A stretch of 64,000 nt of DNA, from the NCBI RefSeq assembly GCF_028830055.1, contig NZ_CP101655.1, positions 4,990,262-5,054,261 of the forward strand, given 5' to 3'. The notes under the pieces are model-generated. The model did no database searches. It saw only the letters and a program-made list of their open reading frames with translations, and was not told where the DNA came from. This DNA comes from Pseudomonas serboccidentalis (GTDB lineage: Bacteria > Pseudomonadota > Gammaproteobacteria > Pseudomonadales > Pseudomonadaceae). The position numbers and the translations under genes are program-made. Positions 21,317 to 33,325 of the stretch are shown piece after piece. Within the stretch, counting starts at the first letter, position 1; each line of letters begins with the position of its first letter.

Positions 21317-21404
21317 GGAGGTGTGGCCGAGTGGTTTAAGGCAACGGTCTTGAAAACCGTCGACTGTAACAGGTCCATGAGTTCGAATCCCATCGCCTCC
21401 GCCA
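21317..21404 (+). tRNA. tRNA-Ser(TGA)
   Basis: 88 bases including the encoded CCA. Acceptor GGAGGTG pairs with CGCCTCC. The anticodon stem-loop CGGTCTTGAAAACCG gives anticodon TGA, the long variable arm of class II serine tRNAs is present, and the T-loop is GTTCGAATCC. Its 3' half is the integration target of the island that follows; the gene was left intact. Confidence 0.96.
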
Positions 21405-21405
21405 T
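21345..21405 (+). repeat. attL: 3' half of tRNA-Ser
   Basis: A 61-base segment from the anticodon stem to the base after CCA. It is repeated in direct orientation at 33265-33325 with 57 of 61 bases identical, the last 28 exactly. This is the classic duplication left by a tRNA-targeting integrase. Confidence 0.85.
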
Positions 21406-21412
21406 CTTATGT

Positions 21413-21446
21413 ACGACAAAGCCCTGATTATTCAGGGCTTTGTCGT
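21413..21446. terminator. Terminator after tRNA-Ser
   Basis: A perfect 14-base stem ACGACAAAGCCCTG / CAGGGCTTTGTCGT with loop ATTATT, followed by TTCT. The rest of 21447-21762 holds no gene that I can support. Confidence 0.85.
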
Positions 21447-21762
21447 TTCTGGGGTTTGAGATTGTGGGTTCTCGCTTCCTGGATCGTTTCCGCATCTTTT
21501 CGGGCATTTCCGCAACCCTACATTCCAGACCGCCCTCTTCCCGTCAATTTTTCAAGCGCCAGATTTGATGAGATGGACGAGTTTAGAGTGAGGCGCAAGG
21601 CTACTTTCTGCTGTGGATTCAACCGGTCGACGCAACACGACTCCATAATTCCCACCCGAGCGTGCATCATCGCGCTCGCCACGATCCCGTCGTGGTATCG
21701 AAGCCATCAGTGCAGAACCTGCCCGCCCGCCAAAACGAGCCTTTTGAAATGGAAGTCATCTC

Positions 21763-22194
21763 ATGTTCGAACGTAACAAACTGATTCCGGAGTTATTGGT
21801 CACCAACCTGGATAGCAGCCTGGCTTTTTGGGTTTCTCGTTTGGGGTTCAAAGTAACTTATCAACGCCCGGAAGATGGATTTGCATATCTTGATTTGAAT
21901 GGTGCTCAAGTAATGCTTGAGCAGGTTGATTCGGACGCGGGTCAGTGGCTGACTGCGCCGTTGACCAAGCCGTTTGGAAGAGGCATCAACCTACAGATTG
22001 ATGTTGAGGCTGTCGCACCCATCATCCAAATACTTGATCAGGCTGGATGTCCGCTCTATCAAGAATGCAAGGACACCTGGTATCGGGCTGACAATGTAGA
22101 AGTAGGCCAGCGCGAATTCATCGTCCAAGATCCCGACGGTTATCTCGTAAGGTTGGTAGAGAGGTTGGGTGAGCGACCGGCTTGCTCAAAGTGA
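21763..22194 (+). CDS. VOC-family protein (glyoxalase/bleomycin-resistance fold)
   Basis: 143 residues with two beta-alpha-beta-beta-beta modules: PELLVTNLDSSLAFWVSRLGFKV then LNGAQVMLEQV, and GINLQIDVEAVAPIIQILDQAG then REFIVQDPDGYLVRLVERLG. The FIVQDPDGYLVRL ending is the usual metal-site strand of bleomycin-resistance-like proteins. It could be a drug-binding or small lyase/dioxygenase protein. First gene of the island, AT-richer than the RiPP operon, no clear operon partner. Confidence 0.85.
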   Translation: MFERNKLIPELLVTNLDSSLAFWVSRLGFKVTYQRPEDGFAYLDLNGAQVMLEQVDSDAGQWLTAPLTKPFGRGINLQIDVEAVAPIIQILDQAGCPLYQECKDTWYRADNVEVGQREFIVQDPDGYLVRLVERLGERPACSK

Positions 22195-22538
22195 ATCTGA
22201 ATCTGAGCCAAGCCGACCGTCAGCTTTGGGTCGAAAACGGTCTCTCCTGACCATTGGGGCCAACGAAAGCCGCGATCCGCGCCAACGGAACACCATGCGC
22301 AATCTGGCGTTTGCCTCGGTATTGACGCTGGTGACGGCTTTGCGTACTGGCTGCTGCCCCGGATGTTCTGCTCCGCACTTTTAAGCGCTATGTGTGAGGT
22401 GTCGCCCAGGGCCAGCAATAAGGAGCGGCCGAACTAATCGCTAATCGGTCTGACCCGGGCCCAATACGGGCAAAACGCCACACTACACTTCCTTTCCTCT
22501 GCTGATGGTTCAGCATTTCCAAGGAAAGGAGATCTGCA
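22195..22538. other. Leader region of the RiPP operon
   Basis: No supported gene. Around 22294 a short frame reads like a truncated lipoprotein start (MRNLAFASVLTLVTAL), probably a remnant. The last 50 bases form the operon's ribosome-site hairpin (separate entry). Confidence 0.4.
22490..22531 (+). promoter_or_regulatory. Hairpin that covers the ribosome site of the first RiPP-operon gene
   Basis: TCCTTTCCT (22490-22498) is fully complementary to AGGAAAGGA (22522-22530), and an inner stem TGCTGA/TCAGCA (22500-22505, 22510-22515) stacks on a TGGT loop. The right arm contains most of the AAGGAG ribosome site of the ATG at 22539. Translation of the operon's first gene could therefore be held off until the hairpin is opened. 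This is an RNA-level inference. Confidence 0.5.
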
Positions 22539-24218
22539 ATGACTGTTGCCGAAAAATCCGGAACCAACACCCCAACTATCACCGTGACCAACCAGAGCGG
22601 CGGCGACCTTGCCGTAGTCAGCGCCTACAGCGACGATGACGCCAGCGCCCAGCAGGTCTACAACCAGACCTTGAGCCTGCTGAAAACCAGCAGCGGCAAT
22701 AGCACCATCGCCAGCACCGCGGCCGCCGACGTAGTACTGGTCGGCGCAACTGGCCAGGTGATCTTCGACCTGCTGTATTCCCGCCCGGCCAACCTCTATC
22801 CGGTGTGTAATGCCTCGCTACTAGCCATCGGCAGCTCCCCCCAGGCGCTAACAGTGACGGCGCAAAACGCCGCCACCATGACCAACGCATTTACCTTCAT
22901 CCAGACCCTCTCCGCCTACCCGTCCTCGATCCTGGCGCAGAACTACGCGGCGGCGGCGCAGAGCGCCTCCAACAGCACCTCGAACCAGGGCATCGACTCG
23001 GCGATGAGCGCGTTCTTCGCCAGCACCAGCAAGTTCAAGGATCTCGACGTGGTCACAGTGACCACCGCCCAGACCTACCTCAGCGCCTTCCCTTTCGGCT
23101 GGGCGCAGAGTCAAGCCAAGTACACCTATTTCTTATACGCGCCCGGTACCGCCAGTAGTGGTAGTGACAGCGCTTCGCCTAGCCAGCTCGGCACCCTGAC
23201 CATGGTGCAGAAGAGCAACCTGCCAGTACCCGCCGACCCCACCGATCATTCCGGCGGCTACATCCTCAGCTTCATCGACAGTCACAAGCAGGTCACGCCA
23301 CTGTTCTATTCCAACGGACAGTTCGTTTCCAGCCTCACCGACGACGTGCCAGCGCTGTGCTTCAAGGGCCTGTTCACGGTGAAGAGCCAGATCAGCGGCA
23401 ACACCGACGACACCGAGGTGCTACCGATCCTGCACGGTTCGATCAACGGTGTCACGGTGCTCGGTCTGAACTTCCAGCTGCCGGCCAACGACGACAGCAA
23501 CGAGTGGTACGCGCTATTCCACCCGAAGAATTTCTACCAGTTCCTGCAATCGACCGCATTCATCGTCGGCGTGCTGATGGCCACCGAATGGATCGGCAGC
23601 AAGCTCGTCGCCCTGGGCAAATACATCAAGAACAAGTGGAACGGCGAAGTGCCTAAAACCCAGGAGCAGCAACTCAAGGAGGTCACCGACCGCCTGGAAG
23701 CCAACCAGAAGGAATTCTTCGACAAGATGGCCGAGCGCTTCGGCCCGCAGGACCCAGTGAACGTGCCAGAACCCGCAGCGCTTGGCCCAAGTATCGAGGA
23801 ACTGCGCGCCAACCAGGTTGCCGAGCTGTCGGACGTGCAGCGCGATCGTCTGAACGACTCCATCGATACCCAACTGGGGCAGATCGAGGATCTGGCGAGG
23901 ATCTCCGACACCCCGGCGCTCAACGAAGCGGCCAGCAAACTCGCCCAGGCGCGTGACGACCTGAACGATGCCTTCACTCCCGACGAGATGCAGCAAGCAC
24001 TGAACGAAGCCACCACCGCGGTGAATGACGCGCATACGACCATCGGCGAATCGATAGAGACCAATGCCCAGCACTTGAACCAGGAACTCAAGCAACAACT
24101 CGACGAGGCACAGATCGCGGTCGAAGACGCGCAGAAGCTGAACGAAGACACCGAAGCGGAAAAAGACGGCGTCAAGGACGGCGAGTTCGATGAAGACCTC
24201 AAGCCGATCGAAATCTGA
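22539..24218 (+). CDS. Unknown large protein, first gene of borosin-like operon
   Basis: 559 residues, not recognised. No signal peptide. It starts with a beta-rich module (ITVTNQSGGDLAVVSAYSDDD) that recurs in two other island genes. Residues ~60-310 are Ser/Thr/Ala-rich with beta strands. A hydrophobic helix spans about 333-352 (STAFIVGVLMATEWIG). The last ~190 residues are an acidic coiled coil (KEVTDRLEANQKEFFDKMAE; LNQELKQQLDEAQIAVEDAQ) ending DEDLKPIEI. The layout parallels the next gene, so the two are likely paralogues. It is co-transcribed with the N-methyltransferase, so it could be a substrate, scaffold or effector of that enzyme. AAGGAG ribosome site inside a hairpin. Confidence 0.8.
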   Translation: MTVAEKSGTNTPTITVTNQSGGDLAVVSAYSDDDASAQQVYNQTLSLLKTSSGNSTIASTAAADVVLVGATGQVIFDLLYSRPANLYPVCNASLLAIGSSPQALTVTAQNAATMTNAFTFIQTLSAYPSSILAQNYAAAAQSASNSTSNQGIDSAMSAFFASTSKFKDLDVVTVTTAQTYLSAFPFGWAQSQAKYTYFLYAPGTASSGSDSASPSQLGTLTMVQKSNLPVPADPTDHSGGYILSFIDSHKQVTPLFYSNGQFVSSLTDDVPALCFKGLFTVKSQISGNTDDTEVLPILHGSINGVTVLGLNFQLPANDDSNEWYALFHPKNFYQFLQSTAFIVGVLMATEWIGSKLVALGKYIKNKWNGEVPKTQEQQLKEVTDRLEANQKEFFDKMAERFGPQDPVNVPEPAALGPSIEELRANQVAELSDVQRDRLNDSIDTQLGQIEDLARISDTPALNEAASKLAQARDDLNDAFTPDEMQQALNEATTAVNDAHTTIGESIETNAQHLNQELKQQLDEAQIAVEDAQKLNEDTEAEKDGVKDGEFDEDLKPIEI

Positions 24219-24287
24219 CCCTCCCCCTTCATTTCCCCCAGATCGGCTACCTATCGGGTAGCTGGTCGCGCACATGGAAGCGCCAAC

Positions 24288-26084
24288 ATGACCAATACAA
24301 TGATCACAGTGGTCAACCAACTGGATTTTACCCTGGTTGTCTATGACACGATGTCACAACCCGTCGGCGATCCGCCAAGCACCAACCCCGCTGATTACTA
24401 CCCGGTGTACAAGCAACTGGGCACAGTCGCCCCCGGGCAGAGCGCGCAGATCCCCAGCCCGGAAATCCTCCCGCGGCTGGTAATGACCCGGCAGAGCGAT
24501 GATTTCCCGGTACAGCTGTTCGTTCCAGATCTGGTCCATGAGAACTTCAGCACCACCGTCACCAGCACCGACCTCGCCTCGACCAACGCCGCCTGGGCCT
24601 TCTACCAAAGCTATGTCAGCCAGCCCTATGGGCCGCTGGCGCTGCAGTTCAGTGCGCTGGTGACCGACCCGGCGAACATGCTCACGCTCGACCAGCAAGT
24701 CTCCGGGCTGCTCTCCACCAGCCCATACAAAGGCGCCGACTACGACGCCTTCAACATCGTCTCGTTCTGGGCCGGCAACTCGCTCTACGCCTGGAGCGGC
24801 ACCTACTACTGCTACGAACCGACCACCAATGGAGGGCAATTGGTACTCCCGCAAACCACGGTCGGCACCTTGCTAATCCAGGACGGCAGCGCGACCTTCA
24901 CCGACAGTCTCGGCGCCAAGACCAGCGTGACCTTGTATAACCTGCAACTCAGTTCCAGCGGCGCCGGTAAAACCTCCGGACTGATCGTCACCGGCACCCT
25001 GCGCGACCTCAGTTGGGAAGGCAAACCCGATCAGTTGGCGATGTGCTGGTCCGGTACCTACAACGGCAACGTATTCATCGCCCAGCCCTACCAGCAGCCG
25101 ACCATTCCCTGGTGGGCGGCGGCCTACGACATGGCCTTCATCGCCTTCGAGGGTGTGCAGATCGCCATGACCGTGGACATGGCCGTGCACGTGCTGCAAG
25201 GCGCAGCCAGTGGCCTGAAATGGCTGGGACAGAATGCCCAGACGCTTTACCAGAACGTGTCACAGCGCCTGCAGTCGGTGGGCGAAAACGCCAACCCGCT
25301 GGGCGATATCGGCGACCCGGTCGACCCAATCAACGTCGATGTGGATGTGGACGTCGACGTGGATATCGATATTGACGTGGACATTGATGTTGACGTGGAC
25401 ATCGACGTGGATATCGACATCGACATCGACATCGATGTGCTGGTGGTGGACATCGACGTGGACATCGATATCGACATCGACACCGACAACGTGGTGGACA
25501 ACGTTGACGTGACCGACACCGATGTCGACGTTGACATCGACACCGACGTCAACGTCGAACCGGGAATGGTCCAGGGCCTGGTCAACAAGGTCGGCAACTG
25601 GATCATGACCAAAGGCTTCCCGGCACTGGTCGAGAACCTCACCATTATGGTCGCCTTCCAGACCGCCGGGCAGTTGCTCAACGCCTGGAAAAGCTCCTCC
25701 GAGCAGTACCTGGCCTCGCTTGCGCCACAGCAGTCGACCGGCGTCGGCCTGCTGGTCAACAGCATGCTCAACGAAGCCAACTCGGTGCAGATACGCTGGA
25801 CCACCTTCGCCCAGTACGTCAAGGAAGCCGAGCCGGACAACACCACCCAGCAGATGAACATCGCCACTGTGCTGATGACCGCCAATGCTGCCGCCGACAA
25901 TGCCCAGCAGGCCTGGCGCTGGTCGAGTGATGACGAGAACGCGTTAGTCGGCCAGATGGCCGCCTGCAGCAGCGCCGACCAGGCCTACATCCTGCTCGGT
26001 GGCAACACCTACAAGGGCCAGGTGTTGCCGATCAAGGTCGGTTGCAGCGTCGCGCTCAAATACCTTAATCGGGTTGCCGGCTAA
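24288..26084 (+). CDS. Unknown large protein with Asp-Val/Asp-Ile repeat tract
   Basis: 598 residues, no known family. It starts with ITVVNQLDFTLVVYDT, as in the previous gene. The middle is beta-rich, with a repeated WSGTY motif (residues ~169 and ~254). A hydrophobic helical stretch (~278-305) is followed by a tract of alternating Asp and Val/Ile at residues ~349-423, about 75 residues with almost no other amino acid. A helical C-terminal domain then ends KYLNRVAG. The tract is strongly acidic and strand-forming; it may bind calcium or a basic partner, or be a modification target. It lies 69 bases after the first gene and 21 before the methyltransferase. Confidence 0.8.
   Translation: MTNTMITVVNQLDFTLVVYDTMSQPVGDPPSTNPADYYPVYKQLGTVAPGQSAQIPSPEILPRLVMTRQSDDFPVQLFVPDLVHENFSTTVTSTDLASTNAAWAFYQSYVSQPYGPLALQFSALVTDPANMLTLDQQVSGLLSTSPYKGADYDAFNIVSFWAGNSLYAWSGTYYCYEPTTNGGQLVLPQTTVGTLLIQDGSATFTDSLGAKTSVTLYNLQLSSSGAGKTSGLIVTGTLRDLSWEGKPDQLAMCWSGTYNGNVFIAQPYQQPTIPWWAAAYDMAFIAFEGVQIAMTVDMAVHVLQGAASGLKWLGQNAQTLYQNVSQRLQSVGENANPLGDIGDPVDPINVDVDVDVDVDIDIDVDIDVDVDIDVDIDIDIDIDVLVVDIDVDIDIDIDTDNVVDNVDVTDTDVDVDIDTDVNVEPGMVQGLVNKVGNWIMTKGFPALVENLTIMVAFQTAGQLLNAWKSSSEQYLASLAPQQSTGVGLLVNSMLNEANSVQIRWTTFAQYVKEAEPDNTTQQMNIATVLMTANAAADNAQQAWRWSSDDENALVGQMAACSSADQAYILLGGNTYKGQVLPIKVGCSVALKYLNRVAG
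25332..25556 (+). repeat. In-frame low-complexity tract encoding (Asp-Val/Ile)n
   Basis: About 225 bases made of GAC/GAT alternating with GTG/GTC/GTT/ATC/ATT codons. Synonymous codons vary from unit to unit, so the peptide pattern is kept without a perfect DNA repeat. That argues for selection on the protein rather than recent slippage. Confidence 0.9.
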
Positions 26085-26105
26085 GCCTTAGGAGAGGAAT
26101 TTCCC

Positions 26106-28532
26106 ATGATCCGTTCTACAGCAACGTCAGCCGAGGCGGCACCCGCCTATGCCAGTAAGCAGGAACACGCCCAGGCCTGGGAAGCCCTGGCCCGCGACAT
26201 CGCCCGCCAACTTCCGGCCTCGGAAACGCCGCCGGCCACTACCACGCGCCAAGCTGCCGGGCAGTTGACCATCATCGGCTCGGGTATCGAGGCCATGGGC
26301 TTCAGCGTCGGCGACGAAGCACTGCTCAAGGCTGCCGACAAGGTCTTCTATTGTGTCGCCGACCCGGCCACCACGGTCTGGCTCAAACATCTGCGCCCGG
26401 ACGCCTTCGACCTCTACGTGCTCTATGACGACAACAAGGTGCGCTATCACACCTACATGCAGATGAGCGAGGCGATGCTGCACCCGGTGCGCCAGGGCGA
26501 GAACGTGGTGGCTGTGTTCTATGGCCACCCGGGGATCTTCGTGCTGTCGACCCACCGGGCGATCGCCATCGCCCGCCGCGAGGGTTACAGGGCGGTAATG
26601 CGTGCCGGCATCTGCGCCCTTGACTGTCTGTGCGCCGACCTCGGCATCGACCCCTGTCATCCCGGCCTGCAAACCCACGAAGCCACCGACATGCTGGTGC
26701 GCGATCGGGTGCCGGACACTAGCCTGCATGTGGTGCTGTGGCAGGTCGGGCTGATCGGAGAAATGGGCTTTCGCCGTGAAGGCTACCTCAACGAGAACTT
26801 CTCGATTCTGGTGCAGTACCTGCAGCAGCATTATGGCGACGACTACTCGATCACCCATTACATCGCCTCTCGCTACCCGGGGGTCGCGCCGATCGTCGAG
26901 CATTTCCCGCTGAGTGCCCTGCATGACCCGCAAGTGCAAGTACGCTTTACCGGCATCTCCACCTTCTACATCGCACCCAAGGTCAGCCGGCCGAGCAACC
27001 GCGAGATGGCAATTCGACTGGGCCTGCTCAAGGACCACGAAATCCTCAAGACGCCGACCAACCCGCAGCGCGAGGTCGACCGCTATGGCCCGCGCGAGCT
27101 GGCCGCGATCCGCCAGTTCGAGAGTTTCAAGGTACCGCTGGACTATCACTGGCAGGAGTCTACCCCCGCCAGCCATTTCATCCTCGCCCTGAAAAACGAC
27201 ATCGGCCTGCGCCAGCGTTTTGCCGCCGACCCGCGAGGCACCGTCGACAGCGATGTGTTTCCCGGTCTGAGCGGGCGCGAGAAACGCCTGCTGGCCACCG
27301 GCGACCCCGGCGCCATGCAGATCGCCGCCAAGGGCGTGTTCGCCAAGGACTCGAACAACAAGGCATTCCTCTTGCAGATGCTTCGCAGCAAACGCCTCGC
27401 CGGCGAGGTGCGCAAGGCCTGCCTGGCCTGTGACAAGAGCACCGGCAGCCAGCACCTGGAAGAAGTCGCGCGCTTCCAGGGCTGGCAGTTCGATGCCGGC
27501 AGCCTGGCGCAGGACATCGTCCTGCTCAACCGTCACGACAGTCTGCCCTGGACCGGAGTCTATTTCAGCGCCGCGGCGCAGCGGCTGATCGTGATCATCG
27601 GCGACCTGGGCAAGCCCGAGCAGTGCTTGCTATACGTCGACGGCCAGCCGGTGTGTCAGGCGCGCTACGAGAAAGGCATTCTTAAGTGGACGGCGGCCAG
27701 CGGCAACCCGCATAACGGGTTCCTGCGCACGGACCTCGGGCCTGGGCGCAAGCGCCGGCTGATCGGCTCGATCTGGGGCGAGCAGGACAACCTGCCGGCC
27801 GAGCATGCGCTGATCGCCAACGAACTGCATCCGGGCGGGCTGACGCCGGTGCATCTGGTGGGCGCGCATCGCAACCAGTTGGGCGACTGCCTGCAGATTG
27901 CCGTGCGCGATCAGCAGGTGGTCGCCCAACTCAATGGCCGGCCGCTAGGTGCGGGGCTGAGTATCAGCGGCTGGTCGCTGTGCGTGGGTGACGCGCGCTT
28001 CGACCTGCAGGCACTGGGCGCGCCGCCGCAGCTGGGCCAGCTCTACCAGCGGCAGGCGCCGCTCGCCGATGAATACTGGGGCAGCTATGTGCTGAGGAAC
28101 CAGCTCGCTGACAGCCCGGCCGTCGTCCTCAACTGGTCGGAGCAGGGCCTGACGGTAAATAGCCAGGCCGTGGGGGAAAGCCGCTTCGCGGACTATCGCC
28201 TGAGTTGGAGCGGCGGCCCTGCGATGGCTGCCAGTGGCACGCTGGAGCTGCTCTGGGACCCGATCACCCTCGACGTGGTGCTGTTCGGTAGCATCGGCTT
28301 ACCGGCCAACGGCAAGGTCAACTGCATCGGCGCGCGGCTGGGCGCGCGGAGGCTGCCGACGGTTAATCCATGGTCCGATCAAGGGCTGTCCGCGCAGGCC
28401 TGGGAGTGGCTGTACCGGCTTTGCGCCGCGGCCAACAAGGAAGGCGGCGGGTTGATGCTCTGGCAGAAGTGGCAGAAGTATGCGTGCAGCACGGCGGTTA
28501 TGAACCGTCAGTTGCATGCCGTGCTGCGCTAA
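26106..28532 (+). CDS. Borosin-type peptide alpha-N-methyltransferase with fused RiPP-leader-like domains and beta-rich tail
   Basis: 808 residues. Residues ~51-290 closely follow the SAM-dependent tetrapyrrole-methylase fold used by borosin enzymes such as OphMA: LTIIGSGIEAMGF, ADKVFYCVADPAT, VAVFYGHPGIFVLSTHRAIA, HEATDMLVRDR. Tyr107, Arg113 and Tyr117 keep the spacing of OphMA Tyr66/Arg72/Tyr76 (numbers from memory). Residues ~353-410 resemble the helical borosin-binding domain of split-borosin precursors (FAADPRG, PGLSGREKRLLATGD). Residues ~417-470 resemble a Nif11-type leader (FLLQMLRSKRL, LEEVARFQGWQFDAGSLAQ). The last ~330 residues are beta-rich and unknown. It likely methylates backbone amides in cis or on the two upstream proteins. 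No hydrophobic core peptide is obvious at its C-terminus. Confidence 0.87.
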   Translation: MIRSTATSAEAAPAYASKQEHAQAWEALARDIARQLPASETPPATTTRQAAGQLTIIGSGIEAMGFSVGDEALLKAADKVFYCVADPATTVWLKHLRPDAFDLYVLYDDNKVRYHTYMQMSEAMLHPVRQGENVVAVFYGHPGIFVLSTHRAIAIARREGYRAVMRAGICALDCLCADLGIDPCHPGLQTHEATDMLVRDRVPDTSLHVVLWQVGLIGEMGFRREGYLNENFSILVQYLQQHYGDDYSITHYIASRYPGVAPIVEHFPLSALHDPQVQVRFTGISTFYIAPKVSRPSNREMAIRLGLLKDHEILKTPTNPQREVDRYGPRELAAIRQFESFKVPLDYHWQESTPASHFILALKNDIGLRQRFAADPRGTVDSDVFPGLSGREKRLLATGDPGAMQIAAKGVFAKDSNNKAFLLQMLRSKRLAGEVRKACLACDKSTGSQHLEEVARFQGWQFDAGSLAQDIVLLNRHDSLPWTGVYFSAAAQRLIVIIGDLGKPEQCLLYVDGQPVCQARYEKGILKWTAASGNPHNGFLRTDLGPGRKRRLIGSIWGEQDNLPAEHALIANELHPGGLTPVHLVGAHRNQLGDCLQIAVRDQQVVAQLNGRPLGAGLSISGWSLCVGDARFDLQALGAPPQLGQLYQRQAPLADEYWGSYVLRNQLADSPAVVLNWSEQGLTVNSQAVGESRFADYRLSWSGGPAMAASGTLELLWDPITLDVVLFGSIGLPANGKVNCIGARLGARRLPTVNPWSDQGLSAQAWEWLYRLCAAANKEGGGLMLWQKWQKYACSTAVMNRQLHAVLR

Positions 28533-28545
28533 AGGGTGGCAGGCC

Positions 28546-29226
28546 ATGGACCTGTTTCGTCACCAACGGGCCGGCGGGCCGGCTGGGGTGTGGATGGCCA
28601 GGGTAGAGTACGACACCGTGGCCTTCCCGTTTCAGCAGATCGTCGCGCGGGACATTTATGGCGTGAGCGAACTGGCCCTACTGCATCGGGCGCAGGCTGA
28701 GTGTGAACAGTGGCGCGGAGATGAGCGCGCCGGCTATCACGCCAACCTGCGCCTGCGCGAGCGGATGAAGGGGCTGGCCGAGGACTGCCAGTTGTACCAG
28801 GCCTACCATGGTTTTGCCCGGAGCGTGATTGCGGCCGCGTTTGGCGGAAAGATCGCCTATGCGAACCAGCCGAAATGGCGGGTGCACCTTGCGCATACCT
28901 GCAGTGTCAGTGCCTGGCACTGCGACGCCCAGGTTACCCGGCGCAGCGATCAGTTGACCGTGTGGGTGCCTTTTGTCGATGTTGACGAGGGTTGCGCGAT
29001 GCATGTCGAAACTGGGTATGGCCGGGGCGATTTCGCACCGGTAACACTGCGTTATGGGCAGGCGTTGATCTTCGATGGAGGGTATCTGGCGCATGGCACG
29101 GTGCACAACCATACCGAGGTCACGCGGGTAAGTATGGACATGCGCTTCGCCTGCCATCGCGGCACCACCGCGAGCTTTGAGCGCTTACGCGAAGCGCGGC
29201 CTTCGCCGCTGCCGACCTGGGCGTAG
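28546..29226 (+). CDS. 2-oxoglutarate/Fe(II)-dependent oxygenase (phytanoyl-CoA dioxygenase-like)
   Basis: 226 residues. The HxD...H iron triad is visible as His125 and Asp127 (SAWHCDAQVTRRSDQLTVWVPF) and a distal His183 (GYLAHGTVHNHTEVTR), with Arg194 or Arg200 for 2-oxoglutarate. It resembles StrG/phytanoyl-CoA-type hydroxylases. It starts 13 bases after the methyltransferase stop (AGGCC before ATG), so it is in the same operon and probably hydroxylates the methyltransferase's product or one of the two large proteins. Last gene of the operon. Confidence 0.82.
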   Translation: MDLFRHQRAGGPAGVWMARVEYDTVAFPFQQIVARDIYGVSELALLHRAQAECEQWRGDERAGYHANLRLRERMKGLAEDCQLYQAYHGFARSVIAAAFGGKIAYANQPKWRVHLAHTCSVSAWHCDAQVTRRSDQLTVWVPFVDVDEGCAMHVETGYGRGDFAPVTLRYGQALIFDGGYLAHGTVHNHTEVTRVSMDMRFACHRGTTASFERLREARPSPLPTWA

Positions 29227-30092
29227 ATTGCGGCGGCCCTGCTCGCTCCCATAGGAATAGTGCTGTACCTGTAAATACCGTCTTGACTCTCTCATCGCGC
29301 AAGCGCGAAGTTTGGATCAAACGGTACGCCTGACTTGAGCTCTCCATAGACCAAATGTTACAGCTTGCGCATCGCTGCGCAGAAGATCAGGTCAGCAGGA
29401 AGACGTTGCGCACGCGGCAGCACATGAGATCCACGCAACACCCGACTACCCTCCCCCGAACAAGTTCCGAGCGTACATGCTCGACAGCATCAACCCTCGC
29501 GCTGCGTCGGCGGCGACAAACACTTCGATCACCATCGCCCATCTCCTCTGCGTATAGCTACGGATAAATATACAAAGCTTTAGCTAATACTCAGATCGTG
29601 AGCGTGCTTCGTGTCGACCTATGCCAGGTTCTGTACGAAATCCCGAGAAACTCAATCGTCGCCCCTCGAACGCTGAGACCTTGGAACCAAGGGGCGCACT
29701 TGATCGACCCTGTCGGTGAAATTCACGGCGGGCATTCGTGAATAACGGCTGATATTGCTGCAGTAGGGGCTTGAGCAGTGCATAGGCCACGCAGGCCTGC
29801 TGATACGTCACGCCCCTGCGCCGGCCCTGATCGGCGCACTTCAACATGCCGGCAGACACCAAGACCGGGGAAAACCACAGAGCGCCTTGCATTCACTCGT
29901 ATATGGTCTTAACTGTGCAATGCAATAAAAGTTACAGGTTAAAAAAGCCACAGAAATGCATTCCATTTTTCCCTAGATAAAAGTCCTCGACGAGTCAACC
30001 TAACTACTGATTATCAGTGGAGATGACAAGTCTGCAGAATTTTAAATAGGGAGCCTACTCATGGAACACTCAATTCAAAAAGGAATATGAAT
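29227..30092. other. Gene-poor, lower-GC stretch after the RiPP operon
   Basis: No gene that I can support. A minus-strand frame at 29584-29892 (102 codons, QGRRRGVTYQQACVAYALL) has no recognisable homologue, no clear ribosome site and ends in Arg/Ser-rich sequence, so it is probably spurious or decayed. From about 29900 the sequence turns AT-rich, leading into the small gene at 30093. Confidence 0.4.
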
Positions 30093-30371
30093 ATGAGCAT
30101 CAAAATCACAAATGGGGCCACCAGAGAGGTCCAAGTCGCAGTCAGCTTTTGGTATACAGATAGTGACGTCAGTGATACCTATTACCCACTGAAGCCCGGC
30201 GATGGTGAAGGATGGAAACGCAATGACTCAAGAGGTTACTTGATGACCATAAAAGGCCAATCCCAAGCAGGTGTATATTACGTTGCCTTTGACAGCGAAA
30301 TCCTCATAGAAGACAACCGTGTAAAGGACCGCGGCGAAACCCTTACCCGACTATCTTTGCAGGCTCAATAG
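30093..30371 (+). CDS. Small beta-rich protein with ITN module
   Basis: 92 residues from ATG 30093, chosen over the ATG at 30087 because AAGGA is 8 bases before it. MSIKITNGATREVQVAVSFW, then TYYPLKPGDGEGWKRNDSRGY and GVYYVAFDSEILI: a compact all-beta protein without signal peptide or Cys. The first strand pair matches the start of the two large RiPP-operon proteins (I-T-V/I-x-N, then a V/A-rich strand). AT-rich codon use unlike the operon. Function unknown; a stand-alone version of that module is the best description. Confidence 0.65.
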   Translation: MSIKITNGATREVQVAVSFWYTDSDVSDTYYPLKPGDGEGWKRNDSRGYLMTIKGQSQAGVYYVAFDSEILIEDNRVKDRGETLTRLSLQAQ

Positions 30372-30408
30372 TATCGAAAAGCTTTAAAATCAATAAATAG
30401 ACATACCA

Positions 30409-30440
30409 AATGACCAACATCGTACATGATGTTGGTCATT
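30409..30440. terminator. Inverted repeat, probable terminator
   Basis: AATGACCAACATC (from 30409) pairs with GATGTTGGTCATT (to 30440) around a short loop, 38 bases after the small gene's stop. The T run is short, so it may be weak. Confidence 0.6.
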
Positions 30441-30537
30441 CCTGTGTGGAGTAACACTGAAGTCCCTCATCTGACTTACCCAGCAGGAGTTTTTTCGGCT
30501 GAGTGCTAAGATTTGGCATAATGTTCGAAAACAACTA

Positions 30538-31050
30538 CTACTTATCTGTGGCAACCTCTTTGACATAGGCTCGGCACGCGCCCAGTGCGATCAGTCCTTG
30601 GTCACCGTCGTCAGTGATGGCGATAATTCGTTGAGCATGCGCGGGGTCAAGTCGGGCGCGTACGGCTGCATGATCCACGCCGCCGGCACCAGCGGTGGCT
30701 GACACCCCACAGCCTTTGGCAGTGTCGGTTGCGTCGAGTAGGACTGACAGCCGCAGATCAGAAGTGGCAAGACGATCGCGCAGGCGATCCTGGTTCTTTT
30801 GAGCATCGGTCATTTTCTCGAAGTGGGTTTGCTCACTGACAGCCCGCCGCTGCTCAAGCGCCAAACGCTTGTCCTGCTCGACCTGCTGCACTGTCGCGGC
30901 GGTCTGGGTCAGTTGATTGAGGGTTTCGGCGTGCTGCTGGGCTTGCTGGGCCAATTGCTTCCCGTAGCGCCAGTCCTGAAACTGCCAGGCGCTGCCGGCA
31001 CCGATCAGCACCAGCACCACTGCGCCCACCGTCTTCCACGGAACGACCAT
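30538..31050 (-). CDS. Phage i-spanin (Rz-like lysis protein)
   Basis: 170 residues from ATG 31050. An N-terminal membrane helix (VGAVVLVLIGAGSAWQFQDW) is followed by a long periplasmic coiled coil (LAQQAQQHAETLNQLTQTAA) and the conserved Rz end (DRLRDRLATSDLRLSVLLDAT; VRARLDPAHAQRIIAITDDGDQGL). The inner-membrane spanin links to Rz1 to disrupt the outer membrane at the end of phage lysis. Its ATG overlaps the stop of the endolysin frame (ATGA). Remnant of a prophage or tailocin cassette. Confidence 0.85.
   Translation of the reverse strand: MVVPWKTVGAVVLVLIGAGSAWQFQDWRYGKQLAQQAQQHAETLNQLTQTAATVQQVEQDKRLALEQRRAVSEQTHFEKMTDAQKNQDRLRDRLATSDLRLSVLLDATDTAKGCGVSATAGAGGVDHAAVRARLDPAHAQRIIAITDDGDQGLIALGACRAYVKEVATDK
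30591..30806 (-). CDS. Phage o-spanin (Rz1-like lipoprotein), nested inside Rz
   Basis: 71 residues read in a different frame wholly within Rz: MLKRTRIACAIVLPLLICGC gives a signal peptide with lipobox ICGC, then a short Pro-containing mature part (QPTLPKAVGCQPPLVPAAW). Nested lipoprotein genes inside Rz are the standard arrangement in Pseudomonas phages and pyocins, which is why this frame is accepted despite the overlap. Confidence 0.75.
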   Translation of the reverse strand: MLKRTRIACAIVLPLLICGCQSYSTQPTLPKAVGCQPPLVPAAWIMQPYAPDLTPRMLNELSPSLTTVTKD

Positions 31051-31472
31051 CACGGCACATCCTTGAAGAAGACGTGCCCGCCCAGCTTGAGGGTCTGCTT
31101 CGCCTTCGCCGCCCAAGCTGGCGCCTCGATGCTGGTGGCGTAGTAATGCGTGGCGCCGCCGGTGGGATCTGGCACCTTGCCGTCGATCACCTGGTCAGCA
31201 GCGATCCGACATTGCGCCAGCTCGCGAAACGGGATTTCCTTCACGCCGATCAGGAACTGATAGTTCGGGTCGGTCTTGTTCCAGCAACTGAACTGATACG
31301 GCTTCTGGCAAACGCCGGCGTAGCCCTCGCCCCACCAAGACTTTTCCTTTCCATCAAATACACGGTTGCAGATCGTCCAGGCCACGGCCACTTGGCCGGC
31401 CGTCCCTTCGCCGCGAGCCTCGCCTCAGATTGCGCGAGCGAGGATGTCGCGGTCTTTTTCGGTGACAGCCAT
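31050..31472 (-). pseudogene. SleB-type cell-wall hydrolase (phage endolysin) with one nonsense codon
   Basis: The full frame starts at ATG 31472 (MAVTEKDRDILARAI), meets TGA at 31427-31425, then continues in the same frame GEARGEGTAGQVAVAWTICN to the stop at 31050. The stop sits where relatives have the Trp of WGEARGE, so a single TGG-to-TGA change explains it. The lost segment precedes the catalytic Glu. The downstream part (PYQFSCWNKTDPNY, GATHYYA) is otherwise intact. Read-through or restart could still give some product, but loss of function is the simple reading. Confidence 0.85.
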
Positions 31473-31800
31473 CACTTTTCTCCAGACAAAAAAATACCCG
31501 CTCAGTGGCGGGCAACTATTGGGGCGTTTAGCCTTGTTTCTACGGCTCAGACACAAGCCTGACGATACAATTCGCCGATTAAAATATGGCTTGGCATCGC
31601 GGATCGGCGTGTTGTCCAGATAGTTGTCGTATTTGTACTGCCGTGCCTAAGGATCAGGTGAGTACGATCGAGCCATGGCACACCGAAAACAATGACCTCC
31701 GATGGCCTTCCGTACAGGTCGCCTATAGGGCTACCCTTTCCGCCGAATGCCGGTTGAGCCCCGGACAAATCACCTCCCCCAGTGCGGCCGCCCCGGCAGC
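31473..31800. other. Phage-remnant intergenic stretch
   Basis: No intact gene. On the minus strand, about 31545-31645 reads QYKYDNYLDNTPIRDAKPYF after a stop, which looks like the tail end of a lost phage structural gene. It is followed by the terminator at 31488-31513. Confidence 0.4.
31488..31513 (-). terminator. Rho-independent terminator (minus strand)
   Basis: On the minus strand GCCCGC-CACTGA-GCGGGT is followed by ATTTTTTT. It would end transcription from whatever phage gene once lay to the right, just before the endolysin start. Confidence 0.8.
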
Positions 31801-32040
31801 TTAAAAGTTGCAGCTGTATTGATATTCGAAAGGGAAAAAGACGGTGTCGACCACCAAAGAAAACGGCGCATCGATTAGTAAAAAGGGAATCAGCTTTCCC
31901 TTGGATGTGCCTACCAGCCACCAGTCAAACCGCAATCCGATGTAGGGGCATCGGTGCTTGTCGTAATCCATCCGCATAGCGGTTGCCATGCACCCGCTCA
32001 AGCTGGCAATCAGCACCAGAAAAATCGCCTTTCGAATCAC
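31801..32040 (-). CDS. YceK/YidQ-family lipoprotein (island copy)
   Basis: 79 residues. Signal peptide with lipobox SLSGC (FLVLIASLSGCMATAMRM). The mature part carries the YceK signature IDAPFSLVVDTVFFPFEYQY after YIGLRFDWW. The E. coli YceK protein is of similar length. Function unknown. AT-rich; a distant relative of the chromosomal gene at 20124-20450 just outside the island. Confidence 0.78.
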   Translation of the reverse strand: MIRKAIFLVLIASLSGCMATAMRMDYDKHRCPYIGLRFDWWLVGTSKGKLIPFLLIDAPFSLVVDTVFFPFEYQYSCNF

Positions 32041-32526
32041 GTAACGTCCTTATTACTTCTTTGCGCAGAACTGCGTAGACGCAGCCACGCAAAGTTAGTC
32101 ACCCATCCCCGACACACTCCCCTCCGTGCCTAACGGCAACCAGCGGAGCGGATGAGTGCATCCGACTGTTGTAGGATCCCCCCCACTCTGGAGACGACCA
32201 TGTCAGCTCTACGCACGCCTATCCCGGAAGACGACTTTCTCGATACGTAGGCTGATCAGGTGGGAAGACGGCGGGATTTTGCACACCTGGCCGAGGTGTT
32301 CAAACATTCACCAGCGGTTGCCGATGATTCTGATCGGAGCCGATTTCGAAACTCGGGATTGGATGCTCAGGCGTGTCGCGACACCATATGAACCTGGCGA
32401 GAAAGTGTCACGAGCATTTCAAGATCGAGTCTGGCGGAACTACAGCGGGACCTGGGCGACGACGCGATTTTACACAACGCCCACCTTCGTTATCAAACCT
32501 TGCCACAACCGGTCACGGAACGACGC
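32041..32526. other. Decayed coding remnant
   Basis: An ATG at 32200 with a good GGAG site opens a frame (MSALRTPIPEDDFLDT) that hits TAG after 16 codons and then continues ADQVGRRRDFAHLAEVFKH. This suggests a broken small gene. The alternative 124-codon frame (32156-32530) has no recognisable features and is Arg/Thr/Pro-rich, so I do not annotate it as a gene. Confidence 0.45.
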
Positions 32527-32754
32527 CTAAACGGCCAGACCTACAGAAGCATCCTTTTTACCCCTCCCCACTACCTCCACCTGCGCGATTCTGATCTCGT
32601 TAATGATGTACAAGGCCTGACCGCCATCGTAGTTCTTCATCACGTCTCTTTCCGCTTGCTCAGCTAAAGCAAAGAGATCAATACCCAGCTCCTTTGCAGC
32701 TTCCATAAACGAAACCAGTGCCTTGGCACGCGCATCCGCGACAACATCACCCAT
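32527..32754 (-). CDS. Small hypothetical protein
   Basis: 75 residues from ATG 32754, chosen for the strong GAGGAG site 6 bases upstream. Mostly helical (ADARAKALVSFMEAAKELGI, LFALAEQAERDVMKNY), then QALYIINEIRIAQVEVVGRG. No signal peptide, no known family. Soluble and probably phage- or island-derived. The helical pattern and ribosome site make it a likely real gene. Confidence 0.65.
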   Translation of the reverse strand: MGDVVADARAKALVSFMEAAKELGIDLFALAEQAERDVMKNYDGGQALYIINEIRIAQVEVVGRGKKDASVGLAV

Positions 32755-33264
32755 AAATTCTCCTCGTTCCGGCTCCATGCCGGGCCGAACACAAATACCC
32801 TAATCCAAACCAAATTGCCACCATCGGTCACGGAGGGCGGCGCCTGGCTGGAGAAATCCATGAATAGCCCCCGCGCATACGTCCGACAGCACGATCAGGT
32901 GCCCACCGAAATTAGCCGCCGCGTCATCACTCGCAAGAACAGCATGTGCCTACCGGGGCCTCAGTGAAACGATCAATCAACCGGGCGCACCAGCGCTGCC
33001 GACAGACCTGGCCGGACTTCCGAAAGCGGCCTCGGAAATCAGCGATATGGGTGACACCAGCCTGCTGCTTGAGCACACAAAAGGCGACATTACTGAGCGA
33101 GTTCATTGCCGCGTCGGCGCCATCGCGAAGCCGTCAAAATAGACTAAAAAGAGTTCCATAACTCGAAACGTGCCCCTTGTAGAATGCGGCATGTAAAGGT
33201 GCTCGAAAATCAGAATAATGGAACGAAAAATCGCTATAAGCCGCGTATTTACTGGTTTCTATCG
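32755..33264. other. Possible frameshifted gene before the right attachment site
   Basis: ATG 32860 after GGAGAAA opens a 35-codon frame (MNSPRAYVRQHDQVPTEISR). A second frame then gives a more convincing protein to about 33140 (YRGLSETINQPGAPALPTDL, AASEISDMGDTSLLLE). One frameshift near 32945 would join them. No family was recognised. The remaining bases are AT-rich and hold no gene. Confidence 0.4.
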
Positions 33265-33325
33265 CGGTTTTGAAAACCGTCGTCTGTAACAGGTTCGTGA
33301 GTTCGAATCCCATCGCCTCCGCCAT
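33265..33325 (+). repeat. attR: partial tRNA-Ser copy
   Basis: A 61-base copy of the tRNA-Ser 3' half, with four mismatches to 21345-21405 and an exact 28-base end (TGAGTTCGAATCCCATCGCC then TCCGCCAT). It lacks the 5' half and cannot be a functional tRNA. Marks the right end of the island. Confidence 0.88.

What the first reader, a model, noticed from the sequence alone, without database searches (positions are those of the whole stretch)
22539..29226. Borosin-like N-methyltransferase operon with an unknown pair of large proteins and a 2OG oxygenase
The 808-residue enzyme at 26106 carries the borosin alpha-N-methyltransferase fold with the OphMA-type Tyr/Arg/Tyr spacing. It is co-transcribed with a 2-oxoglutarate oxygenase and two large paralogous proteins that match no family I know. 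There is no short precursor gene and no exporter. So either the enzyme modifies itself, or the large proteins are the substrates, which would be backbone N-methylation of whole proteins rather than small peptides. I know of no described system with this make-up.
Basis: partly seen in the sequence, partly recalled or inferred. Interest (0 to 1): 0.95.

Follow-up and report, generated by a model that had tools for sequence, protein, structure and literature searches.

The report
Backbone-methylating operon with giant precursor
A four-gene bacterial cassette encodes a borosin-type enzyme predicted to methylate the backbone of a long alternating aspartate/valine-isoleucine strand carried inside a large neighbouring protein, so it is a variant of a known peptide-modifying system rather than an unknown kind.

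Summary
The operon is real and the 808-aa enzyme (M) is a borosin alpha-N-methyltransferase by sequence, predicted structure and catalytic residues. Alternating acidic cores are described for type III borosins, and type VIII split borosins are said to have ~160 aa after the core (172 here). A (22539-24218) is a core-less paralogue of B's N-domain; O is a 2OG oxygenase. The set recurs in several phyla, on plasmids, and here in a probable tRNA-Ser-bounded island. Of 33 full-length M-class loci, 27 have an array ORF within 3 kb, against 0 of 50 other loci fetched. In two loci without B's N-domain, A is missing too, yet an array on another carrier stays beside M. Most likely M (and O) modify B's array; A is a structural partner. 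Self-modification is unlikely. Known kind (split borosin); apparently new are the partnership with A and O and the internal core. No chemistry was tested, and the papers defining types V-X could not be read.

The parts
22539..24218 (+). A: 559-aa core-less paralogue of B's N-domain; N-domain, then (read by eye) a hydrophobic helix and a coiled-coil-like tail
   Evidence: no array in 21 of 21 A proteins aligned
24288..26084 (+). B: 598-aa split-borosin precursor protein: folded N-domain (1-340), core (~350-424), helical C-domain (427-598)
25335..25559 (+). core: residues 350-424 of B, Asp alternating with Val/Ile/Thr; residues 349-419 have pLDDT under 50
26106..28532 (+). M: 808-aa borosin alpha-N-methyltransferase; residues 45-411 align with OphMA; then helices, three strand-rich stretches within 484-745 (read from the secondary structure) and a C-terminal helical pair
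28516..29226 (+). O: Fe(II)/2-oxoglutarate oxygenase (PhyH/StrG-like)
21317..21404 (+). tRNA-Ser(tga), island boundary
21345..21405 (+). 61-bp direct repeat, copy 1 (3' end of tRNA-Ser), putative att site
33265..33325 (+). 61-bp direct repeat, copy 2 (93% identical), putative att site

Best explanation
A split-borosin cassette. M, as a dimer, binds the precursor protein B and transfers methyl groups from SAM to backbone amide nitrogens within B's ~75-residue Asp-Val/Ile/Thr array, probably mainly on the Val/Ile/Thr residues and iteratively. O hydroxylates residues of the same array, most likely Asp. A, which shares B's N-terminal domain but lacks the array, pairs with B through that domain as a scaffold or delivery partner and is not itself methylated. 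No protease or exporter gene was seen to recur with the cassette, so the product may stay embedded in B as a protease-resistant polyanionic strand. Shown here by sequence: M's family and active-site residues, the array in B, its conservation, the co-occurrence, the A/B homology, O's active-site residues. Inferred: that methylation happens, on which residues, that O acts on the array, that A binds B, and any biological role.
For: M is closest to OphMA/dbOphMA/MroMA/SonM in the PDB (E 9e-80 to 1e-41; structure). The array is in B and in 61 of 61 B hits (three of these, P0183-P0185, have E 2e-5 to 5e-4 and may match only through the repeat), in 0 of 21 A proteins, and in 0 of the 120 M homologues listed of 369 found. 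22 of its 32 Asp are kept in at least 90% of 31 aligned rows. It uses mixed codons (11 codon-pair types in 30 pairs), so it is held at protein level. It is the only stretch of the B model with pLDDT under 50, between two well-predicted domains. Of 33 loci with a full-length M, 27 have an array ORF on the same strand within 3 kb by one fixed rule; 0 of the 50 other loci do. Natural swaps: Pseudoalteromonas L021 has the array near the end of a 99-aa ORF, Enhygromyxa L070 on a different carrier, both next to M and O and without A; three actinobacterial loci have ORFs of 103-188 aa (stop to stop) with a short array just upstream of M. A is found in 22 of the 25 fetched loci that have B's N-domain; the other three reach a contig end close to B. 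Alternating acidic cores are described for type III borosins, with up to 11 modifications in residues 742-796 of bacterial KchMA (nonpolar residues preferred, some on Asp), and ~160 aa after the core for type VIII (PMC11395268).
Against: No chemistry was tested. M keeps the clasp/BBD-like region of fused enzymes, unlike the lone SonM-type enzyme, so how B docks is not obvious. L025 has a full-length M and no array nearby by either rule; L006 and L009 are cut by contig ends; L035, with a broken M of this class and an O fragment, has no array (its upstream ORF resembles the tail of the L005 B protein, so B may be decayed). The primary papers on types V-X (Imani 2022, Cho 2022) are not held, so type VIII membership rests on one secondary description. 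O's substrate is a guess, and O-like hits also occur beside MTs outside the full-length set (L034, L035, L037, L039, L068). Absence of an exporter is not firm: in Azospirillum two ABC transporter genes lie just upstream of A.
Confidence: 0.85

Rival explanations
1. M modifies itself, as fused borosins do, at its own C-terminus; A and B are unrelated partners.
For: M has the OphMA-like clasp and BBD-like region, which in OphMA leads into a fused core.
Against: No array in M or in the 120 homologues listed; M's C-terminus is predicted folded; an array ORF sits beside M in 27 of 33 loci, on several kinds of carrier.
Confidence: 0.05
2. Both A and B are substrates, so whole proteins are N-methylated along folded regions.
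For: A is a regular neighbour and shares B's N-terminal domain.
Against: A lacks the array (0 of 21). A is absent together with B's N-domain while an array and M stay (L021, L070). That borosin enzymes act on extended peptide segments is recalled, not tested here.
Confidence: 0.06
3. The array is a simple DNA repeat or an acidic linker unrelated to M.
For: TRF finds degenerate 6-51 bp periods there; DLDLDL repeats exist elsewhere in Pseudomonas.
Against: Mixed codons, longest exact repeat 17 bp; alternation kept in B homologues at 37-55% identity; association with M on different carriers.
Confidence: 0.03

Closest known systems
Split borosins of types VII/VIII (described in PMC11395268, citing earlier work)
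   Same: Separate methyltransferase and precursor; related to type III enzymes; about 160 aa follow the core in type VIII (172 here).
   Different: I could not read the primary papers, so I cannot say whether A and O were noted there. The cassette of L093 (its B is nearly identical in the compared parts to a protein labelled Pseudomonas mosselii, P0130) lies in another branch of the M tree than this one; that the published PmoM is that cassette is a guess from its name.
Type III fused borosins (AboMA, bacterial KchMA; PMC11395268)
   Same: Core of alternating acidic and other residues; OphMA-type enzyme.
   Different: There the core is fused to the enzyme (KchMA residues 742-796); here it is inside a separate protein.
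OphMA / omphalotin pathway (type I, recalled)
   Same: M's residues 45-411 align with OphMA; catalytic residues kept.
   Different: No fused core; extra ~400 C-terminal residues; core acidic and internal to another protein.
SonM/SonA (type IV split borosin, PMC8429565)
   Same: Separate enzyme and precursor.
   Different: The SonM chain is ~262 aa and SonA small (recalled); here the enzyme is 808 aa and the precursor 598 aa.
PhyH/StrG-like 2OG oxygenases
   Same: O has H-x-D...H...R; the Azospirillum homologue is annotated StrG.
   Different: O scores just under the PhyH cut-off (21.0 vs 22).

Membership tests
Borosin (alpha-N-methyltransferase) | Methyltransferase domain of the OphMA/SonM family rather than tetrapyrrole methylases | tested here: met
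   [not shown]
Borosin (alpha-N-methyltransferase) | Catalytic residues equivalent to OphMA Y63, R72, Y76, Y98 | tested here: met
   Y104, R113, Y117, Y139; mapped by eye, invariant; roles recalled, and in part from PMC11395268
Borosin (alpha-N-methyltransferase) | Ribosomal precursor with a core region next to the enzyme | tested here: met
   array in B; (a core by likeness, not by shown modification)
Borosin (alpha-N-methyltransferase) | Backbone N-methylation of the core | not testable with these tools
   needs mass spectrometry
Split borosin type VIII | Enzyme and precursor are separate proteins | tested here: met
Split borosin type VIII | About 160 aa after the core | tested here: met
   core ends near residue 424-426 of 598; definition from a secondary description (PMC11395268)
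Split borosin type VIII | Definition in the primary paper (Imani 2022) | not tested
   paper not held
Type III fused borosin | Core fused to the enzyme itself | tested here: not met
   no array in M, nor in the 120 homologues listed
Fe(II)/2OG oxygenase | HxD...H triad and 2OG-binding Arg | tested here: met
   H135, D137, H193, R204 invariant in 28 chosen sequences
PhyH (PF05721) | Score above the Pfam cut-off | tested here: inconclusive
   21.0 vs 22 bits

The most novel reading that the evidence does not exclude
The end product is not a released peptide but a stable A-B protein complex holding a long backbone-N-methylated, beta-hydroxy-aspartate-bearing strand, a ribosomal polyanionic chelator or membrane-active filament spread by horizontal transfer. 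To my knowledge this would be the first natural system where backbone N-methylation serves a folded protein rather than a small peptide.
Probability: 0.25. Interest if true: 0.9.

Novelty: new variant of a known kind. Interest (0 to 1): 0.6.

Why it matters
It shows where the substrate most likely is, which turns an open guess into a simple co-expression test. It also points to a mobile four-gene cassette in which the borosin enzyme is tied to a core-less twin of its precursor and to an oxygenase. If the product stays in the protein, it would extend backbone N-methylation from small peptides to folded proteins and offer a route to long N-methylated polyanionic strands.

Tried and rejected

Other conserved neighbours: (best 22 clusters printed) was mostly shadow frames and an ABC-ATPase-like cluster in 4 loci. 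A cleaner run with A, B, M, O and array ORFs masked (33 loci, 369 ORFs of 100 aa or more) gave five clusters in 3 or more loci, none in more than 4: one overlapping ABC transporter genes (L003, L004, L025, L094), three in near relatives, and a gene beside M in L010, L014 and L019. No peptidase cluster was recognised, by eye only; Pfam was not run on these ORFs.

An empty insertion site was not shown: Pseudomonas relatives match up to and just past the tRNA-Ser, but the downstream flank lies elsewhere in them, and parts of the glyoxalase stretch match elsewhere in two (G002, G016). The rule that finds the three short actinobacterial arrays was loosened after seeing them; under it 1 of 49 other loci examined (L029, whose MT is cut by the contig end) also has one; L028 could not be placed. 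HMM counts for A can include cross-hits to B, so the A counts rest. For the O alignment I chose 27 loci ORFs plus the window; L019, whose ORFs are broken there, and the O-like hits beside other MTs were left out.

Literature: 'borosin' is in 32 held papers, 30 listed. One search listed 12 of 878 papers, none of which held 'borosin'; one search listed 15 of 52,583; one search listed 15 of 18. The core strings appear in four unrelated papers. Papers seen: PMC11395268 parts 1-2 of 5 and passages; PMC8429565 abstract and passages; PMC11285071 passages; the rest as search listings.

Full report
WHAT IS THERE. Four ORFs run in one direction at 22539-29226 with gaps of 69 and 21 bp and one 17-bp overlap. 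I call them A (559 aa), B (598 aa), M (808 aa) and O (236 aa). The genome is probably a Pseudomonas: the nearest M outside the window is 99% identical and labelled Pseudomonas koreensis.

THE MISSED CORE. Residues ~350-424 of B read as Asp alternating with Val, Ile or Thr. In 31 aligned B proteins this stretch is 47-98 residues long (median 78), 41.5% Asp, 28.8% Val, 11.8% Ile, 9.5% Thr; 22 of the 32 Asp of the window's B are Asp in at least 90% of the rows. Codons are mixed and the longest exact DNA repeat is 17 bp, so this is not a young microsatellite. In the B model (31 sequences) 349-419 is the only segment with pLDDT under 50, between a folded N-domain and a helical C-domain. A carries no such array (0 of 21), nor do the 120 M homologues listed of 369 found.

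WHY THE ARRAY IS THE LIKELY SUBSTRATE. I took 80 loci from the genome collection by M similarity (the best 80 of 570 confirmed) plus three others. By one fixed rule 33 of the 83 have a full-length M, and 27 of these have an array ORF on the same strand within 3 kb; 0 of the other 50 do. Of the six without, L006 and L009 are cut by contig ends, L022, L023 and L033 are actinobacterial, and L025 is Paenibacillus. The three actinobacterial loci turned out to have ORFs with a short array right before M, found after loosening the rule. L025 stays unexplained. L035, outside the 33 because its M is broken, has an O fragment and no array; an ORF before it resembles the tail of the L005 B protein, so its B may be decayed (by eye). 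In Pseudoalteromonas (L021) the array lies near the end of a 99-aa ORF, and in Enhygromyxa (L070) it sits on a different carrier. The carrier changes, the array stays with the enzyme.

A AND O. The N-terminal ~310 residues of A and B are homologous (probability 99.4, E 2.5e-21). A was found in 22 of 25 fetched loci that have B's N-domain; the other three (L004, L015, L018) reach a contig end 0 to 1.9 kb before B. In L021 and L070, where B's N-domain was not found, neither was A. I infer that A pairs with B through this domain. O was found near 28 of 33 full-length M (not in L005, L022, L023, L025, L033) and keeps H135, D137, H193 and R204 in 28 chosen sequences, so it should be active; that it acts on the array is inference. 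O-like genes also lie beside five MTs outside the 33. In L010, L014 and L019 a further shared gene is present, and an ORF of like wording lies between O and A in L093 (by eye).

SPREAD. Of 298 Pseudomonas genomes searched, own included, 2 have a true B gene, and 1 of 398 genomes across the phylum at E 1e-30 (its own). Yet full-length M loci come from records titled Pseudomonadota, Cyanobacteriota, Bacillota, Bacteroidota, Myxococcota and Actinomycetota (titles of bins can mislead). The cassette lies on a conjugative Azospirillum plasmid with an IS630 element downstream and ABC transporter genes upstream, and between IS elements on a Mycetohabitans megaplasmid. The window's M and that of L093, another Pseudomonas, sit in different supported branches of the M tree. 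Here the cassette lies between tRNA-Ser (21317-21404) and a second 61-bp copy of its 3' end at 33265-33325, 93% identical; the Pseudomonas relatives searched match up to the tRNA and their matches stop within about 120 bp after it. A spanin gene and an endolysin fragment lie in the same interval. This looks like an integrated, partly phage-derived island; an empty site was not shown.

COMPARISON WITH THE KNOWN. PMC11395268 describes 11 borosin types: type III cores alternate acidic and other residues, type VIII split borosins are said to have about 160 aa after the core, and bacterial KchMA carries up to 11 modifications in its fused core, preferring nonpolar residues with some on Asp. B fits a split precursor of that sort with 172 aa after its core. 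So the system is of a known kind. The papers that defined types V-X are not held, so I cannot say whether A and O were noted. In the papers I could search, I found no description of this four-gene set (only a few of these papers were opened).

VERDICT. Borosin enzyme: near certain. B's array as substrate: likely. O acting on the array and A as partner: plausible. Biological role: open; polyanionic metal or cation binding by a protease-resistant strand is my best guess.

Noticed in passing
window 21317-33325: An 11.9-kb interval bounded by a tRNA-Ser and a 61-bp, 93% copy of its 3' end, holding the cassette; probable genomic island.
   Followed up: partly
window 30538-31424, - strand: Phage lysis genes inside the island: Rz-like spanin (E 4e-54) and an endolysin fragment (E 1e-17).
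   Followed up: partly
L022 9441-9944, L023 9368-9931, L033 9502-9810: Actinobacterial full-length M homologues have upstream ORFs with a short Asp-Val/Ile array followed by repeated Pro-Gln-Val motifs: possible short precursors.
   Followed up: partly
L010 12178-13821, L014, L019; L093 10619-11794 on its reverse strand: A further gene beside M or O with a 'HYGP-G-N' stretch is shared by three loci and, by eye, L093: perhaps an optional fifth member.
   Followed up: no
P0126, P0167, L004, L005, L008, L070: Some B proteins carry extra C-terminal modules: F5/8 type C (P0126), mannose-binding lectin (P0167), or repeats that look like a propeller (by eye in L004, L005, L008; weak Kelch/DUF6923 hits in L070).
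   Followed up: no
L036, L072, L073: Other large borosin-type enzymes carry Ala-Glu/Val-rich or Asp-rich C-terminal stretches, perhaps fused acidic cores.
   Followed up: no
L083-L088, L091, L092: DLDLDL frames in other Pseudomonas genomes look like simple DNA repeats, not genes.
   Followed up: yes
[not shown]
   Followed up: no
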